From Deltaproteobacteria bacterium (GTDB lineage Bacteria; Myxococcota_A; UBA9160; UBA4427): 55,171 nt of DNA. This document shows, piece by piece, positions 46,734 through 55,171 of the stretch. The position numbers and the translations under genes are program-made. The stretch spans positions 27,854 through 83,024 of the forward strand of contig NZHD01000087.1 of NCBI GenBank assembly GCA_002691205.1, in the 5' to 3' direction. The notes beneath the pieces were generated by a model. That model saw only the letters and a list, made by a program, of their open reading frames with translations, searched no databases and was not told where the DNA came from. The stretch's first letter is position 1; every line of letters starts with the position of its first letter.

Positions 46734-47972
46734 CTATCGGAGAGCAGGCTCTTCGTCGACCAGTTCAGCCAACAGGGTGCCTCGGTATCGGTCAGAGGCA
46801 AGAGATTCGAGCTGAGGAAGCCCGTCGACGAGTTGATTGAGTCGGCGCACCTGGTCTGGCGTCATGGCTTCGAAGGCGAGGACAAGGCCCTCAGTTCCAT
46901 CATCTCGGGCTACGTGGGCCGAAACTCGAAGGGCTTCGATTAAGCCGGGTCCATGCAAAACCAGTTCGATTTGTTGACCGAGATCGACACCAGGCATAGG
47001 TTCGATCTTCATACCCAGGCAGGAAAGGTCGCGAGCCATCATGACTTTGCCTCGTCCTCTCCGATGAGCCGGAACCGGAGCGGAATAGGCTCGTCGAGAT
47101 CCCGCTCTGCGGTCCTCTGACAAACAACGGTCCCCCGCCTCTTTCTGACCGGTGATGGACTGAGGAACAGGAATAGGAGGGTCTGTTTCGTCGTCGAGAG
47201 TGAGTCCCTCAAGGGCTTCGATTGATTCCGAAGGCAGCACGGGCATGGTTTCGCTGATGAGTTCATGATCGATGGCTGGTGGATCAAAGGACCATTCGTT
47301 GAGCAGCGAAGACAGTCGCACTCGGATGAAGTCGCTCATTTCAGGGTTCCACATGATTCCGGCATAGTGACTGTTCGCCTCAGGGTTCTTGGCGACTCGA
47401 ACAATTTTACCGTCCAGTCGTAAACTCAGGCCGCCGCTCACTTGACTTGGCAGGACGACGCCGATTTCTCGCCCGAGGCCCATGCGATCCGGAGTGAGGA
47501 TCCGGCACCCACGGTTAGAAATATCCATCAAGCGTGCGCTCGTGCGCCCTCTCGGGTTTCCGTCGAGGGCCAGTGAAACCCCAGCCCCCATAGCGACCCG
47601 CTCTTCCTGTCTTTTCTCGGTGCCCGAATAAATGCCGCGGCAGATCAGTAGTTCCCATAGATCAAGGTGACCCGGGAGTTGGACACGAAGATGGAAGCCC
47701 CACTTTTGAAGCTGTTCCGTCGAAAAAGTTGCAGCCTCTTCGGTGGCGATGATTCGGAGAGGTCGGCCTGGACGAGCCCCAGCGGGTGTTCCTCGGTGAA
47801 CTTGTTCCGCATAGTGGGTTGTTGAGATGAGGAGGTCCATGGGAGGGAGCTGTGGTCCGTCGAGAGGGTTCTCAGAAAACCGCAGATACGAAACGCCCAT
47901 CCGGTCAAGCAAGCGAGCGACCTCTGTGAGTTCGCCGTCGTCGAGAAGCATGATACGTGTGGAGGATTGCAT
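46734..47972 (-). CDS. Double PilZ domain protein
   Basis: A 412-residue soluble protein with two PilZ domains that should bind cyclic di-GMP. The first (about residues 120-230) has KRQEERVAM (RxxxR) and LMDISNRGC (DxSxxG). The second (about 295-395) has RRAGSRRAYSA and RDLSCLGM (DxSxxG). Both therefore keep the nucleotide contacts. The N-terminal 110 residues (RIMLLDDGELTEVARLLDRM) look like a degenerate receiver domain. AAGGA precedes ATG by 8 bases. It may link c-di-GMP to motility or surface polysaccharide; the output is not visible. Confidence 0.9.
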   Translation of the reverse strand: MQSSTRIMLLDDGELTEVARLLDRMGVSYLRFSENPLDGPQLPPMDLLISTTHYAEQVHRGTPAGARPGRPLRIIATEEAATFSTEQLQKWGFHLRVQLPGHLDLWELLICRGIYSGTEKRQEERVAMGAGVSLALDGNPRGRTSARLMDISNRGCRILTPDRMGLGREIGVVLPSQVSGGLSLRLDGKIVRVAKNPEANSHYAGIMWNPEMSDFIRVRLSSLLNEWSFDPPAIDHELISETMPVLPSESIEALEGLTLDDETDPPIPVPQSITGQKEAGDRCLSEDRRAGSRRAYSAPVPAHRRGRGKVMMARDLSCLGMKIEPMPGVDLGQQIELVLHGPGLIEALRVSAHVARDDGTEGLVLAFEAMTPDQVRRLNQLVDGLPQLESLASDRYRGTLLAELVDEEPALR

Positions 47973-49704: not shown

Positions 49705-50811
49705 ATGAAGGTTAGAGCAGCCATTGCAGTTGAGGCGGGGCATCCGCTGATCGTTGATGAGATCGATCTAGAGGGCCCAAAGCAGGGCGAGTGCCTTGTT
49801 CGCCTTGTCGCGACCGGAGTTTGTCATACCGATGCTTTTACGCTTTCGGGGGATGATCCGGAGGGACTTTTTCCCGCAGTGCTGGGTCATGAGGGCGCTG
49901 GGATCGTAGAAGAAGTTGGACCGGGCGTGACTTCCTTGGCGGTTGGTGATCACGTCATTCCTTTATACACTCCAGAGTGTAGACAGTGTAAGTTCTGCCT
50001 CTCCGGGAAGACGAATCTGTGCGGAGCCATTCGTGAAACGCAGGGCCAGGGTCAGATGCCTGACGGAACCAGTCGCATCTCTTATAAAGGCCAAAGAGTC
50101 CACCATTATATGGGTACTTCGACATTCGCCGAGTACACGGTGGTTCCCGAGATCGCCTTGGCGAAGGTTCGATCGGATGCACCACTGGATAAGGTCTGCT
50201 TGCTTGGGTGTGGGGTAACGACAGGAATTGGTGCGGTACTTCACACTGCGAAAGTGGAACCCGGATCCAACGTTGCCATTTTTGGCATGGGCGGAATTGG
50301 GCTCGCTGTGATTCAGGGAGCCGTGATGGCTGGAGCAGAGAAAATCATTGCGGTGGATGTGAATGAGAAAAAGTTTCCGTTGGCGAAGCAATTTGGTGCC
50401 ACCGACTTTGTTAACCCTCGTAAGGTGGATGATATCGAGGCGGCCATTATTGAAATGACTGATGGCGGAGTCGACTACTCTTTTGAATGTATAGGCAACG
50501 TAGAAACGATGGGAAATGCGCTCCGATGCTGTCACAAGGGGTGGGGCGAATCGATTATTATTGGTGTAGCGGGTGCAGGGCAAGAGATTCATGCTCGTCC
50601 TTTTTTACTTGTGACAGGGCGTTCATGGCGAGGGACTGCTTTCGGCGGGACGAAGGGGCGTACTCAGCTTCCGGGCTTCGTGGATCGCTACATGTCAGGC
50701 CGAATTAAGCTAGATGAAATGGTGAGCCGAACCCTTCCCCTGGAAGATATCAATGATGCATTTGAGTGGATGCATGACGGCTCCGTTATTCGGAGTGTGG
50801 TGCTCTACTGA
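49705..50811 (+). CDS. frmA: S-(hydroxymethyl)glutathione dehydrogenase (class III alcohol dehydrogenase)
   Basis: A 368-residue zinc alcohol dehydrogenase of the glutathione-dependent formaldehyde type. [12 protein letters not shown] and [13 protein letters not shown] carry the catalytic zinc ligands, and [16 protein letters not shown] the structural zinc cysteines; [19 protein letters not shown] and [12 protein letters not shown] are the NAD fold. It oxidises the glutathione-formaldehyde adduct. AAAGGAAATTAA precedes ATG. No FrmB esterase is adjacent. Confidence 0.94.
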
Positions 50812-50883: not shown

Positions 50884-51948
50884 GTGAGCAGACTCGATCT
50901 TAAAGCAGGACATTTGTGTCCGGATACTCGCCGGAGTTCAGCCAGCGATTGTTCGGGGTCGTCTTCAATGGTTTGGGGCTTGAGCGAGGCGATGGACTGT
51001 GTTCGTACCGACCTCCCCAATTTAGCCGAAAGCGATTGCTCCGTTTTAATTGTGGGGGAGACCGGTACGGGCAAGGGAATGCTTGCGCGAGAACTGCATC
51101 AAGCCTCCTCTAGAGGCGGACAGCCTTTTGTTCATGTTGATTGCGCCGCATTGGCTTCAAGTGTGATTGAAAGCGAACTCTTTGGTCACGAGCGTGGGGC
51201 GTTTACGGGGGCTTCGGCGGCCCGCAAAGGGCGCTTTGAACTTGCGTCCACGGGCACTGTGTTCCTTGATGAAATTTCCGAGTTGTCCCCTGAAGTTCAG
51301 GCCAAGCTATTGCGCGTCCTACATGATCGACGCTTTGAACGGGTGGGGGGGACAAAGACAATGGTTTTAGACGCCCGAGTGGTGGCTGCGACCAATCGTT
51401 CACTTCCGCTGGAGGTTGCAGAAGGTCGATTTCGATCTGACCTCTATTACCGACTCGCCGTCGTTGAAATCGAGTTGCCGCCTTTACGGAATCGCGTGAT
51501 GGATCTCGAGGCGTTAGTTGAAGAGGCCAGTCGCGTGGTCTCCGCTCGGCTCGGAAGAGAAGTGAAGAGGCCCACTGCCGGAGCACTCTCTCGCTTGTGC
51601 GCGTACAGCTGGCCTGGAAATGGGCGGGAAGTTTTTAATATCATTGAGCGTGTCGCTGTCCGGTGGCCTGAAAGAGATTTCGATCAAAAATTGGCCGAGA
51701 GAGCAGTGGGTTCACGTGCCGTTCCCGAGGAGCCCCTTTCTGCGGGCTCAGCGGGCCTACCCCCGAAAGGGCTTTCCCTGGAAGAAGTTCTGATGGGGTG
51801 CGGGGGCAATGTCAGTCTGGCCTCTCGCAAGTTGGGAGTCCCAAGGAGTACCTTTCGGCATCGCTTGGCGAAGGAGCGATCGAAGGCGGATGCGACGTCT
51901 GAAGCTCAGCTTGTTTTTTCTTTCGGTGCGGTTTCGCATATTCCCTGA
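50884..51948 (+). CDS. Sigma-54 interaction (AAA+) transcriptional activator
   Basis: A 354-residue orphan enhancer-binding protein without an N-terminal receiver. VGETGTGKGMLAREL is Walker A, GAFTGA (about residue 108) the sigma-54 contact loop, TVFLDEISEL Walker B, and FRSDLYYRL the Arg finger. The C-terminal NVSLASRKLGVPRSTFRHRL is a Fis-type helix-turn-helix. Key residues are intact, so it should drive sigma-54 open-complex formation; WPGNGREVFN replaces the usual WPGNVRELRN. It is followed by the exosortase gene, which implies a PrsR-like role in surface-protein expression. The start (GTG 50884) is unsure; ATG 50968 is possible. Confidence 0.88.
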   Translation: MSRLDLKAGHLCPDTRRSSASDCSGSSSMVWGLSEAMDCVRTDLPNLAESDCSVLIVGETGTGKGMLARELHQASSRGGQPFVHVDCAALASSVIESELFGHERGAFTGASAARKGRFELASTGTVFLDEISELSPEVQAKLLRVLHDRRFERVGGTKTMVLDARVVAATNRSLPLEVAEGRFRSDLYYRLAVVEIELPPLRNRVMDLEALVEEASRVVSARLGREVKRPTAGALSRLCAYSWPGNGREVFNIIERVAVRWPERDFDQKLAERAVGSRAVPEEPLSAGSAGLPPKGLSLEEVLMGCGGNVSLASRKLGVPRSTFRHRLAKERSKADATSEAQLVFSFGAVSHIP

Positions 51949-52201
51949 ATCGAAAGAGTCACGTGATCCCAGGAGACGAGCCCTGCAGGACGCTTAGGCT
52001 ATATTGCGGCTTGCAATCCTGTGCGGTGAAGGGAACCGGCTTGAGGCGAAACTTGTCTTGTCTTGGTATGGCCAATGTTTCTAAATTCTGTTTGCCGGAG
52101 TGCGGTGGAGTTCGAGGGCTTTTGGGGCGGGAGGCTTTCGATCGATCAATATGTAGGCCGTAAGCGCGGGGCCCAATTTTGATTCTATTTTTGGAGAAGT
52201 G
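51949..52201. other. Intergenic region upstream of the exosortase gene
   Basis: About 250 bases. ATTGC and GCAAT form a small inverted repeat at 52003-52017, a possible operator. I looked for a -24/-12 promoter and found only a poor match. GGAGAAG 5-6 bases before ATG 52202 is the ribosome site. No gene. Confidence 0.35.
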
Positions 52202-53773
52202 ATGAGTAGTTCCACAGAGCGTCCAGAGAACACTCCGACCGGTCTAGTCATGAACTGGCGTATGTGGCTTCCTCATTGGCTGGCTTTCGCTGTTTTCCTT
52301 CTGGCTTTTCATCACCTTTACACGCTTGGGACCCGTTACAGCTTTAGTCAAGGTGTGGAGTATTGGTTGTTTCGTCCCAACGATAATGCTCCTTTGATTA
52401 TCGTCGCTTTGAGCCTTTGGCTGCTGTACCGGCGGTCCAATCGGCTTTTGGCTCTGCCTCGTCAAACTGGTCCACTGGGTTTAATTTGGCTTGGCGTCGC
52501 GACCGGGGTCGCTATTTTTTTCTGGGCTGTTTACACATCGGCCTTTGACCTTCAGGTTTTTTCCCTCATCCTCTTGCTGACCTCCATCGTGTGCGCCTAC
52601 TGGGGAATGCCGGGTTTGCGTGCGGTTTGGCTGCCCATTGCCTTTCTCTTGTTTGCGGTTCCTTTGCCTGCGCCTTTGCTGTTGGCGATCATTTTCAAGC
52701 TCCAGATTTGGACCGCTCAGTCAAGTGGGTGGATGTTGGACTTGTTAGGTCTCCCGGCTCTGGTCTCTGGCGATCAAATTTTGCGGGCCACGCAAGCTTT
52801 TCAGGTGATTGAAGGCTGCAGCGGTATGCGTTCGATTCAGATCTTGAGCCTTCTCTCGATCTTGCTGATTGATCTTTTTCAAAGAACCGGTTGGCATGCC
52901 CTGATTCTTTTCCTCATGGCGCCCTTCGTCGCCTTCGCGTTGAATGGCCTCCGTGTTTTGACCCTCATTCTCAATCCTCATTCGGAGGTGATTGCGATTC
53001 ACAATCTCCAGGGCATTGTGATTCTTCTGATGGGGCTCTTAGTGATCTATGGACTTGATATTTTGCTCGAGAAGTTCCCCAGATTGAGCCATGAGGTTAG
53101 CTTCTCGGCCGTGGATCCAGCTGGTTTTGGATCCAAGCAGGCCTTGGCGGTCGTCAGCGTGGCCGCATTGGCGACTCACGCCGCTCTTTTTTTCGGCCCT
53201 GTTTGGCAGGCTCCTGGATCCAACCTGCCTTCTTTGTACTCGACGGTGAGCGATTCTCTTTCCATGTGGGACTCGGAGAAGGTGGAGCCTGATTTCGCGT
53301 TCCGGGGGAGTGCGCGTTTCGGCGAGGTTCTTAAACGGGAGTACTTTCTCGATGGCGGTTCGGTTTCTGTTTTCGTGGCCGAGTCAGATTATTTACAGCG
53401 GGGCGGAAGCTCGCTTTCAGCGATTACGGCCCTCCCTGGCTCAGGCTGGACGGTACGAAAAGACGAGGTCGAAGAGCAGCCGGATGGGCGCCTTTTTGAC
53501 GTTCGTTCGGTTGAAAAAGGCAAGCGACGTTTGTTGCTTTGGCACTGGGTGATCGGTTCGGAGGGGCTTTTGAAGGAAACGCTTCGCTCTCTATTGGCTC
53601 TGGATCGAAGTCCATTTGCCCGGTCCGTTCCCATTCTCAGCGTTCGTTTGGAGACGTCGATTAGGGGTCGCCGTCCAACCGGGGTGGCTAGGGCTGAGGC
53701 ACGTTTGCGATCGGTCCAGGAAAAGCTGGAGCCGGCTTTGGCCCTGCTGAGGGAAAATCCAACGCCGAATTGA
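52202..53773 (+). CDS. Exosortase with C-terminal EpsI-like domain
   Basis: A 523-residue exosortase, the membrane cysteine protease-transpeptidase that recognises PEP-CTERM tails. About eight helices span residues 23-290. The active-site residues are Cys206 in EGCSGMRS, Arg251 in LNGLRVL and His267 in IHNLQG. Residues about 320-480 are an EpsI/DUF3485-like domain (VFVAESDYLQRGG, PLPAP helices earlier, RLLLWHWVIG) on the outer side. A combined sortase-EpsI protein is seen in some lineages and may couple sorting to exopolysaccharide. ATG 52202 has GGAG 5 bases upstream. It follows the sigma-54 activator. Confidence 0.92.
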   Translation: MSSSTERPENTPTGLVMNWRMWLPHWLAFAVFLLAFHHLYTLGTRYSFSQGVEYWLFRPNDNAPLIIVALSLWLLYRRSNRLLALPRQTGPLGLIWLGVATGVAIFFWAVYTSAFDLQVFSLILLLTSIVCAYWGMPGLRAVWLPIAFLLFAVPLPAPLLLAIIFKLQIWTAQSSGWMLDLLGLPALVSGDQILRATQAFQVIEGCSGMRSIQILSLLSILLIDLFQRTGWHALILFLMAPFVAFALNGLRVLTLILNPHSEVIAIHNLQGIVILLMGLLVIYGLDILLEKFPRLSHEVSFSAVDPAGFGSKQALAVVSVAALATHAALFFGPVWQAPGSNLPSLYSTVSDSLSMWDSEKVEPDFAFRGSARFGEVLKREYFLDGGSVSVFVAESDYLQRGGSSLSAITALPGSGWTVRKDEVEEQPDGRLFDVRSVEKGKRRLLLWHWVIGSEGLLKETLRSLLALDRSPFARSVPILSVRLETSIRGRRPTGVARAEARLRSVQEKLEPALALLRENPTPN

Positions 53774-54236
53774 GGGCCCGTTCCTTGGAATTTTACACCC
53801 GAGGGGGCATTTAATTTCCTTCGGGGATACTTCCGGTCTTGATTCCGGGGTTTTTGCTTAGATCCTCGTCTATGAATTAATTGGTGAAGCGGGTGAGAGG
53901 GGTAAGAAACCTTTACTCGAACAGAGAAAACCTTTTCCGTTCACGGCTGCACGACGAAGCTCAGGCGGCGATTAGGGGGACGAGGGCTCGAAATGGCGAT
54001 GGCATAGTGATTGCATATCCCTGTGACCTCGAACAGAAAGCGGTATTGCGCAAATCGTGTAAGTATCCGCTTTACAACCAGTTTTGGGTGCTTTGGCTAG
54101 ACCCGAAAAAAACATGGAAAAGTCACAAAAACGAGTTTGACCTGAGCCTAGCGTTGGTGATAGGGTGCAAGAGTTGCGATTGGGATCTCGTCCCTCGCAG
54201 GGCTCCACGATGGAAATCTCAGAGGAGAAAAAAAGA
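53774..54236. other. Intergenic region with a sigma-54 promoter and a long leader
   Basis: About 460 bases. The -24/-12 site at 54000-54015 would start transcription near 54026, giving a leader of about 210 bases before ATG 54237. A 10-base direct repeat CTCGAACAGA occurs at 53916 and 54028, and TTGCGCAA at 54046-54053. A plus-strand open frame through the region (53881-54240) has no motif and is not counted. A weak CCGG hairpin plus T-run lies at 53833-53855. Confidence 0.5.
54000..54015 (+). promoter_or_regulatory. Sigma-54 (-24/-12) promoter
   Basis: TGGCATAGTGATTGCA matches the consensus TGGCACG-N4-TTGCA: GG at -24 and GC at -12 are exactly 10 bases apart. It points at the secreted protein gene at 54237, and a sigma-54 activator gene lies 2 kb upstream. 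No other match this close was found in the intergenic regions I scanned. Confidence 0.75.
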
Positions 54237-54668
54237 ATGATACGAAACCTTATAGTGCTTGGATGCACCGCCTTGCTGACGATCGGCCTTTCTTTTGGTT
54301 CGTTCGCTGGCTCCGCGCCCGACGCCGACAGTGATGGTGTTCCGGACGCGTACGACAACTGCGTAAACACGCCCAATGGTCCTCTTTTGGCCACGGGTAA
54401 CTGTTCTTCGCAGGAAGACTATGATGGAAATGGTTACGGACAACCTTGCGACACCGATGTCAACAATGACGGTTCTACGGGTCTTGATGATATCGCGATC
54501 GTGATTACCGCACAGGGCAACGGCGCCGACGACATCTCCGATTTCAACTGTGACCTCGGTGTTGGCCTCGATGACCTGGCAACTGCGCTTTCGCAAATTA
54601 CGTTCACGCCTGGTCCAAGTGGTCTGTCATGCGCCGCGCCAACCGCGACAAACTGCTCCGCTCAGTAG
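54237..54668 (+). CDS. Secreted calcium-binding protein (thrombospondin type 3 / dockerin-like)
   Basis: A 143-residue exported protein. Residues 1-25 are a signal peptide (MIRNLIVLGCTALLTIGL onward). A thrombospondin type-3 repeat DADSDGVPDAYDNC follows, then two EF-hand-like loops, DVNNDGSTGLDDIAIVI and DFNCDLGVGLDDLATAL, in dockerin-like spacing with the terminal helix. It probably binds calcium at the cell surface. No PEP-CTERM tail is seen. GAGGAG lies 9 bases before ATG, and a sigma-54 promoter about 210 bases upstream. The second gene follows 160 bases on. Confidence 0.85.
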   Translation: MIRNLIVLGCTALLTIGLSFGSFAGSAPDADSDGVPDAYDNCVNTPNGPLLATGNCSSQEDYDGNGYGQPCDTDVNNDGSTGLDDIAIVITAQGNGADDISDFNCDLGVGLDDLATALSQITFTPGPSGLSCAAPTATNCSAQ

Positions 54669-54754
54669 TACGTACTGCGATTGTGTAATTTGAAAGTTGA
54701 TCGAACTCTGCGACACAGAGACAAGGTTCTAATTGGATAAGTACTACTTCTGTT

Positions 54755-54789
54755 ACACACGTGGGATGAAGTGATTAGTTCACGTGTGT
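54755..54789. repeat. Inverted repeat upstream of the last gene
   Basis: Perfect 9-base arms ACACACGTG and CACGTGTGT, 17 bases apart, each with a CACGTG core. It may be a transcription-factor site, or the stem of a leader hairpin, between the dockerin-like and cohesin-like genes. No T-run follows. Confidence 0.65.
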
Positions 54790-54826
54790 GAGAGTTGGAT
54801 GAAAACACCTTAAAGGAGATAATTGG

Positions 54827-55171
54827 ATGCGACTTCTGATAACAAACGTGCTTGCAGCGGCACTTCTGCTCTTCGGAGCGGCCGGAGCAAATGCATTTTC
54901 GACAAGTATGACCAACAGCTGGGGCGGCGGCGTGGCCTCGGTGGGTGACACGTTGACAGTGACAGTTTCGTTTGACACTGACGGGTCAAATGACGTCTCA
55001 CTTCTTTCTGTGAGTGTTCTTTTCGACGATGCCATCATGACCTACGACGGCGGAACGTCCGCCACCTACGCGCTGTACACCGGAGGCAAGGGAGCTTCGT
55101 ATCTGAAGCCGGCCACCACGAACAACACGCTTCGTGTGGGAACCAGCAACCAGATCCTCTTGGACTGGCAG
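54827..55171 (+). CDS. Secreted cohesin-like protein, 3' end outside the window
   Basis: The first 115 codons of a gene open at the window edge. A signal peptide (residues 1-23, ending ANA) is followed by GDTLTVTVSFDTDGSNDVSL and VLFDDAIMTYDGG, which resembles the beta-sandwich start of cohesin-like or PEP-CTERM surface domains. AAGGAG stands 8 bases before ATG. It follows a dockerin-like gene and the perfect inverted repeat. The C-terminus, and so any PEP-CTERM signal, cannot be seen. Confidence 0.83.
   Translation, partial: MRLLITNVLAAALLLFGAAGANAFSTSMTNSWGGGVASVGDTLTVTVSFDTDGSNDVSLLSVSVLFDDAIMTYDGGTSATYALYTGGKGASYLKPATTNNTLRVGTSNQILLDWQ

What the first reader, a model, noticed from the sequence alone, without database searches (positions are those of the whole stretch)
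50884..55171. Sigma-54-controlled exosortase locus driving secreted calcium-binding proteins
An orphan sigma-54 activator, an exosortase-EpsI fusion, a near-perfect -24/-12 promoter (TGGCATAGTGATTGCA) and two genes for exported proteins are consecutive. In proteobacteria, PrsK/PrsR systems use sigma-54 to control PEP-CTERM genes; here the activator lacks a receiver and a kinase is not beside it, so it would be a different control circuit.
Basis: partly seen in the sequence, partly recalled or inferred. Interest (0 to 1): 0.7.

Follow-up and report, generated by a model that had tools for sequence, protein, structure and literature searches.

The report
Exosortase-linked cohesin–dockerin switch locus
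Right after the gene of a protein-sorting enzyme, this bacterium carries a conserved promoter element, likely switched on by the regulator encoded next door, in front of two genes for likely exported proteins with predicted 'plug' (dockerin) and 'socket' (cohesin) folds, which would let the cell dock one protein on its surface through the other.

Summary
In detail: a receiver-less sigma-54 activator (50884-51948), a fused exosortase-EpsI gene (52199-53773), a -24/-12 element (54000-54015) and two export-type genes lie in a row. Tools add three things. (1) The promoter is real by conservation: 31 of 33 readable exosortase loci at 37% identity or more have a GG-N10-GC promoter plus a dyad GGAA-N6-TTCC (at most one mismatch) in the 3' flank, in 26 of the 31 at 75-82 bp upstream; 0 of 13 more distant exosortase loci have it. 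Geometry matches the published PEP-CTERM box; the box sequence differs. (2) The products are more than calcium binders: the first has a predicted dockerin fold, the second (cut by the contig end) belongs to a family of PEP-CTERM-tailed cohesin-fold proteins. The genome holds another such pair in the same order. (3) That the neighbouring activator works the switch is inference: its HTH type sits at this locus in 8 of 9 family genomes that have it, yet 11 family genomes keep box and promoter without it. Best reading: a sigma-54-switched, exosortase-anchored cohesin-dockerin display module, a new variant of the PEP-CTERM regulatory system.

The parts
49705..50811 (+). S-(hydroxymethyl)glutathione dehydrogenase-like gene; syntenic neighbour, not part of the mechanism
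   Evidence: TIGR02818 651.8 bits over cut-off 543.95; a gene with the same start and end motifs lies upstream of the activator or exosortase in many relatives read
50884..51948 (+). Receiver-less sigma-54 activator (AAA+ plus Fis-type HTH)
   Evidence: PF00158 216.8 bits, PF02954 25.6 bits, no receiver; TIGR02915 (PrsR) 249.5 bits against cut-off 502.6
52199..53773 (+). Exosortase fused to an EpsI-like domain
   Evidence: PF09721 and PF11984 over cut-off; no named exosortase subtype reaches its cut-off, nearest XrtD 129.7 of 400
53925..53938 (.). Enhancer-like dyad AGAAAACCTTTTCC (box GGAA-N6-TTCC, one mismatch)
   Evidence: at most one mismatch in all 31 loci against a mean of 3.3 (maximum 8) in 300 shuffles; 22 of the 31 promoters were picked with a dyad near them
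54000..54015 (+). -24/-12 (sigma-54 type) promoter TGGCATAGTGATTGCA
   Evidence: GG-N10-GC with the dyad in 31 of 33 readable loci at 37% exosortase identity or more (not in G056 and G033)
54137..54166 (+). Possible second promoter, TTGACC-N18-TAGGGT (sigma-70-like)
   Evidence: in G000, G001, G011, G025 of the nine loci; G020 has TTTACC; not reported by the consensus scan
54237..54668 (+). Small export-type protein: hydrophobic N-terminus, TSP3-like segment, dockerin-fold domain (about residues 65-127)
54827..55171 (+). Start of a cohesin-fold protein, cut by the contig end; full-length orthologues and paralogues end in PEP-CTERM
   Evidence: PF00963 18.7 bits, E 0.0021, below cut-off 24.1; orthologue model has a cohesin-like fold; orthologues and paralogues end in PEP-CTERM

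Best explanation
This is a conserved locus in which a fused exosortase gene is followed by a -24/-12 promoter with a fixed-distance enhancer-like dyad that is predicted to be fired by the neighbouring receiver-less sigma-54 activator, and that would co-express a likely secreted dockerin-fold protein and a cohesin-fold protein, predicted to end in PEP-CTERM, that likely bind each other once the exosortase has anchored the cohesin. Shown here: the gene order, the promoter and dyad and their conservation, RpoN in the genome, the domain matches and the predicted folds. Inferred: that the activator binds the dyad as an oligomer and contacts sigma-54 RNA polymerase by looping; that both genes are one transcript; that the fused exosortase handles the cohesin's tail (the tail itself lies beyond the contig end); and that this dockerin binds this cohesin. 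With no receiver or sensor domain, the activator would be governed by its own level or by a protein that holds it back, as PspA does for PspF (recalled; abstracts seen in the listing).
Confidence: 0.5

Rival explanations
1. The dyad is read by another, unlinked enhancer-binding protein common to the order, and the neighbouring activator is a later arrival that serves a different or additional target.
For: Box and promoter persist in 11 family genomes without the activator nearby, and in another family of the order (f7). Similar recognition helices occur where the box is absent. This genome has 19 matches to the sigma-54 activator domain.
Against: In this genome the box-promoter composite occurs once, which does not suit a general regulator. 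Eight of the nine family genomes with the activator's HTH type have it within 4 kb of this exosortase.
Confidence: 0.38
2. The operon is driven mainly by the sigma-70-like element at 54137-54166; the sigma-54 site is a conditional extra promoter or makes a leader RNA.
For: TTGACC-N18-TAGGGT about 100 nt before the start codon in G000, G001, G011, G025; the last 100-130 nt of the leader align among five loci of genera g1 and g11.
Against: Not found in the other four of the nine loci, where the sigma-54 site is kept; not reported by the consensus scan.
Confidence: 0.2
3. Both proteins have the folds but do not pair: the cohesin-fold protein is a stand-alone matrix protein and the dockerin-fold protein binds calcium only.
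For: No complex was modelled; the function of cohesin and dockerin outside cellulosomes is called unknown in a review (passage in PMC5244752). Of three further cohesin-type genes in this genome, two have no dockerin gene seen beside them. In six relatives the PEP-CTERM protein near the dockerin-type gene is not recognisably a cohesin.
Against: The two genes are adjacent in several genera, and a second pair with a minimal 80-residue dockerin protein (Dockerin_1 22.3 bits, cut-off 22.9) stands in the same order on another contig.
Confidence: 0.28
4. An ordinary PrsK/PrsR-controlled PEP-CTERM gene.
For: Same geometry as the published box-spacer-promoter arrangement (section 7 of PMC1569441).
Against: Activator has no receiver and scores 249.5 against the PrsR cut-off 502.6; none of ten other activators of the genome scanned reaches it, best 412.4; TTTACA is at the published spacing in 0 of 31 loci.
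Confidence: 0.06

Closest known systems
Proteobacterial PEP-CTERM box with PrsK/PrsR and sigma-54 (Haft 2006, PMC1569441)
   Same: Exosortase, PEP-CTERM protein, -24/-12 promoter, activator box about 63 nt upstream of it, box sometimes doubled (section 7 read)
   Different: Box is GGAA-N6-TTCC, not a 17-mer ending in TTTACA; local activator lacks a receiver; no PrsR over cut-off among the 11 activators scanned; one target operon found in this genome; leader 214-486 nt instead of 71 on average
PspF-type receiver-less enhancer-binding proteins (recalled)
   Same: AAA+ domain and Fis HTH without an N-terminal sensor
   Different: TIGR02974 (PspF) 251.8 bits against cut-off 443.55; different neighbourhood
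Exosortases XrtD and XrtW
   Same: Best two NCBIfam scores; the XrtD match runs through the C-terminal EpsI-like part
   Different: 129.7 of 400 and 117.5 of 425 bits, far below both cut-offs; linked here to a dockerin-type gene
Cellulosomal and non-cellulosomal cohesin-dockerin modules
   Same: Predicted folds of both partners
   Different: Single small proteins; the cohesin family carries a PEP-CTERM tail; no enzyme or carbohydrate-binding module matched on the window's dockerin protein

Membership tests
PEP-CTERM/exosortase system | EpsH-type exosortase with Cys, Arg, His | tested here: met
   PF09721 134.9 bits; EGCSG, NGLRV, HNLQG motifs; which residues are catalytic is recalled
PEP-CTERM/exosortase system | Substrate with C-terminal PEP-CTERM | tested here: inconclusive
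   Window gene is cut by the contig end; five full-length orthologues score over cut-off and near-identical paralogues on C35 and C46 end in PEP-CTERM
PrsK/PrsR regulation | PrsR response regulator (TIGR02915) | tested here: not met
   249.5 of 502.6 bits; no receiver
PrsK/PrsR regulation | 17-nt box ending TTTACA, 32-92 nt before the promoter | tested here: not met
   0 of 31 loci; only the hexamer was searched, as the paper's logo is a figure
PrsK/PrsR regulation | -24/-12 promoter before the exported gene | tested here: met
PrsK/PrsR regulation | PrsK kinase beside the activator | not tested
   Neighbours on both sides are a dehydrogenase and the exosortase; PrsK was not sought in the genome
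Named exosortase subtypes of NCBIfam | Score over a subtype cut-off | tested here: not met
   only the broad TIGR04178 signature is over its cut-off
Cohesin | Pfam PF00963 over cut-off | tested here: inconclusive
   Window fragment 18.7 of 24.1 bits; homologues P0051 and P0099 over cut-off; 20 of 53 at E 0.01
Cohesin | Cohesin fold | tested here: met
   Model of an orthologue, pLDDT 83.2
Dockerin | Pfam PF00404 match | tested here: not met
   Window protein: none at E 1; 0 of 39 homologues at E 0.01
Dockerin | Dockerin fold with paired calcium loop-helix repeats | tested here: met
Dockerin | Binds a cohesin | not testable with these tools
   No complex modelling was available

The most novel reading that the evidence does not exclude
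A bacterial lineage has its own sigma-54 switch, with its own enhancer box, for an exosortase-built docking station: a cohesin anchored by a dedicated fused exosortase receives a co-expressed free dockerin protein, a cellulosome-like plug-and-socket assembled through the PEP-CTERM route rather than by sortase or S-layer anchoring.
Probability: 0.38. Interest if true: 0.78.

Novelty: new variant of a known kind. Interest (0 to 1): 0.63.

Why it matters
It would give the PEP-CTERM system a second regulatory code (new box, receiver-less activator) and a concrete job for at least some exosortase substrates: presenting a cohesin to which another secreted protein can dock. Both claims can be tested with purified domains and a short promoter fragment. 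In the open-access library searched, no paper holds both 'PEP-CTERM' and 'cohesin', and the single paper that holds 'exosortase' with 'cohesin' or 'dockerin' does not link them in the passages read. Subscription papers were not searched.

Tried and rejected
Motif alone: HGGYAYNNNNNTTGCA genome-wide, 12 matches against 14 in the control, so no regulon can be read from it. PEP-CTERM genes of this genome: 32 matches at E up to 1, 27 over cut-off, 30 with loci. In one search, of these 30, 5 had no readable frame, 3 only a fragment, 1 only 27 nt upstream and 1 repeated another gene, which leaves 20; none has a good promoter with the dyad at the usual spacing. The nearest is L132, a weak GG-N10-GC site with a one-mismatch dyad 106 nt before it. 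A first version of this scan was wrong because loci on the minus strand had not been turned; it is not used. One search failed in its shuffle step and was redone. PDB sequence search with the cohesin profile: no hit. The 80-residue dockerin against the dockerin alignment by hhalign was weak (probability 10). Loci at 37% identity or more without the element: G056 and G033. G016 and G071 end at the contig edge and L008 had no exosortase hit; these three were left out. In some searches I counted a promoter only with a dyad near it; promoter-like sites without a dyad also occur, in both groups. Considered and rejected: plain PrsR system, named exosortase subtype, chance motif.

Full report
What is there. 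The window is G000:C27:27854-83024 and the contig ends at the window end. In order on the plus strand lie an S-(hydroxymethyl)glutathione dehydrogenase-like gene (49705-50811), a sigma-54 activator of 354 residues (50884-51948), an exosortase fused to an EpsI-like domain (52199-53773), a -24/-12 element (54000-54015), a small export-type protein (54237-54668) and the first 115 residues of another (54827-55171). The activator has the AAA+ domain and a Fis-type HTH and no receiver; its Walker A is at residue 58, which leaves no room for a sensor domain. The exosortase passes Pfam but no named NCBIfam subtype. The genome has four other exosortase matches, 19 matches to the activator domain, a clear RpoN and 27 PEP-CTERM matches over cut-off. 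I infer an uncultured myxococcote.

Is the promoter real? The 16-mer occurs once exactly in the genome, but its relaxed form is no more frequent than a reversed control. The test is conservation. In nine genomes with the exosortase and the next gene, all nine have GG-N10-GC between them. Upstream of it a dyad GGAA-N6-TTCC recurs: 9 exact copies against 0.15 in dinucleotide shuffles (maximum 3), and at most one mismatch in 9 of 9 loci against a mean of 1.8. A composite pattern of dyad and promoter in all 30 held family genomes gave 35 matches against 4 for the reversed pattern; 14 of the 35 are directly 3' of the exosortase (compare). Thirty of the 35 came with loci. Of the 17 that are not at the exosortase, six stand just before genes whose products end, by eye, in a sorting-type tail; two of these six abut the longest reading of the frame.

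Sixteen further exosortase loci, four of another family: 15 have promoter and dyad, G056 has not. Twenty more stretches and four own exosortases were read. Of eight readable loci at 37% identity or more, seven have it and G033 has not. Of 13 more distant loci (29-35% where one search gives a figure; three are other exosortases of this genome), none has it. Together 31 of 33 against 0 of 13. In the 31, an exact dyad is in 21 and one with at most one mismatch in all, against 0.22 and 3.3 in shuffles. Twenty-six have a dyad at -75 to -82, and ten have two about 30 bp apart. In some searches the promoter counted was one with a dyad near it, which favours the result; the distant loci were read by the same rule. 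A dockerin-type gene follows in 30 of the 33; it was not detected in G063 and G077, where the contig soon ends, or in G033.

Comparison with the known box. Haft and co-workers described, upstream of proteobacterial PEP-CTERM genes, a 17-nt motif ending in TTTACA, a spacer of 62.8 nt on average and a sigma-54 motif, and tied it to PrsK/PrsR (PMC1569441, section 7 read). One PEP-CTERM gene has since been shown RpoN-dependent (PMC9850573, passages read). Here the geometry is the same but the box is another: TTTACA at that spacing is in 0 of 31 loci. Ten of the 13 other activators read were scanned; none reaches the PrsR cut-off.

Who works the switch? The neighbouring activator is the natural candidate. 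A profile of its HTH finds 9 of 30 family genomes at 66 bits or more; in 8 of the 9 it is within 4 kb of this exosortase, in G013 it is elsewhere, and the next best hit is 46.7 bits. G023 has a copy that runs into low-complexity repeats at the contig end with no HTH seen. Against it, 11 family genomes with readable upstream DNA keep exosortase, dyad, promoter and dockerin-type gene without it, so something else reads the box there. Outside the family, activators with a similar helix occur in G030, G033, G034 and G046, whose exosortase loci lack the box. In this genome the composite occurs once, which favours a local activator over a general one. I put the neighbour at about even to slightly better.

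Second pair. On contig C46 an 80-residue export-type protein matching Dockerin_1 (22.3 bits, cut-off 22.9) directly precedes a gene of the cohesin family (hhalign probability 99.6), beside four sulfatase genes. A protein of the TIGR03790 family on C47 ends in a TSP3 and dockerin-like stretch. Sulfatase genes also lie beyond the cohesin gene in G001. A role in handling sulfated polysaccharides is a guess from neighbourhood.

Mechanism proposed. The activator, perhaps limited by its own amount, binds the dyad (in some relatives twin dyads about three helical turns apart), loops to sigma-54 polymerase and starts a long-leader transcript of the dockerin and cohesin genes. Both products are exported; the exosortase encoded just upstream handles the cohesin's PEP-CTERM tail; the dockerin protein binds it at the surface. 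Shown: order, sites, conservation, domain matches, predicted folds. Inferred: every binding, export and catalytic step. A sigma-70-like element at 54137-54166, shared by four of nine loci, is the main alternative start.

Verdict. The finding is real and richer than described; it is a new variant of the PEP-CTERM regulatory system joined to a candidate cohesin-dockerin pair.

Noticed in passing
54137-54166: TTGACC-N18-TAGGGT about 100 nt before the dockerin gene, inside a stretch that aligns among five loci of two genera: a possible second promoter.
   Followed up: partly
L265:3515-4528 (G000:C46): Second dockerin-then-cohesin pair with an 80-residue minimal dockerin protein, with four sulfatase genes beside it; no box.
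   Followed up: partly
L233 (G000:C47:47661-47981): TIGR03790-family protein of about 514 residues ending in a TSP3 and dockerin-like stretch.
   Followed up: partly
54867-55171: 302-305 bp at the window end are 95-96% identical to copies on C46 and C35, which would explain why the contig stops here.
   Followed up: yes
L092:6678-8270 (G012): A citrate synthase gene with an N-terminal MerR-type HTH stands between activator and exosortase; genes with a similar C-terminal end stand before the exosortase in G010, G022 and G029.
   Followed up: no
L196:5981-7612 and L197:6189-7820 (G020, G017): Related 543-residue export-type proteins with an LTPFG-type C-terminal tail next to a box-promoter composite.
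   Followed up: no
46734-47972: 412-residue protein with PilZ matches in two stretches; similar-looking genes lie upstream of the locus in several relatives.
   Followed up: no
P0095: Metagenome protein joining a cohesin-like part to a run of TSP3 repeats.
   Followed up: no
L255 (G017): A more distant exosortase (34%) with a dockerin-type gene about 780 nt behind it but no box-promoter found.
   Followed up: no
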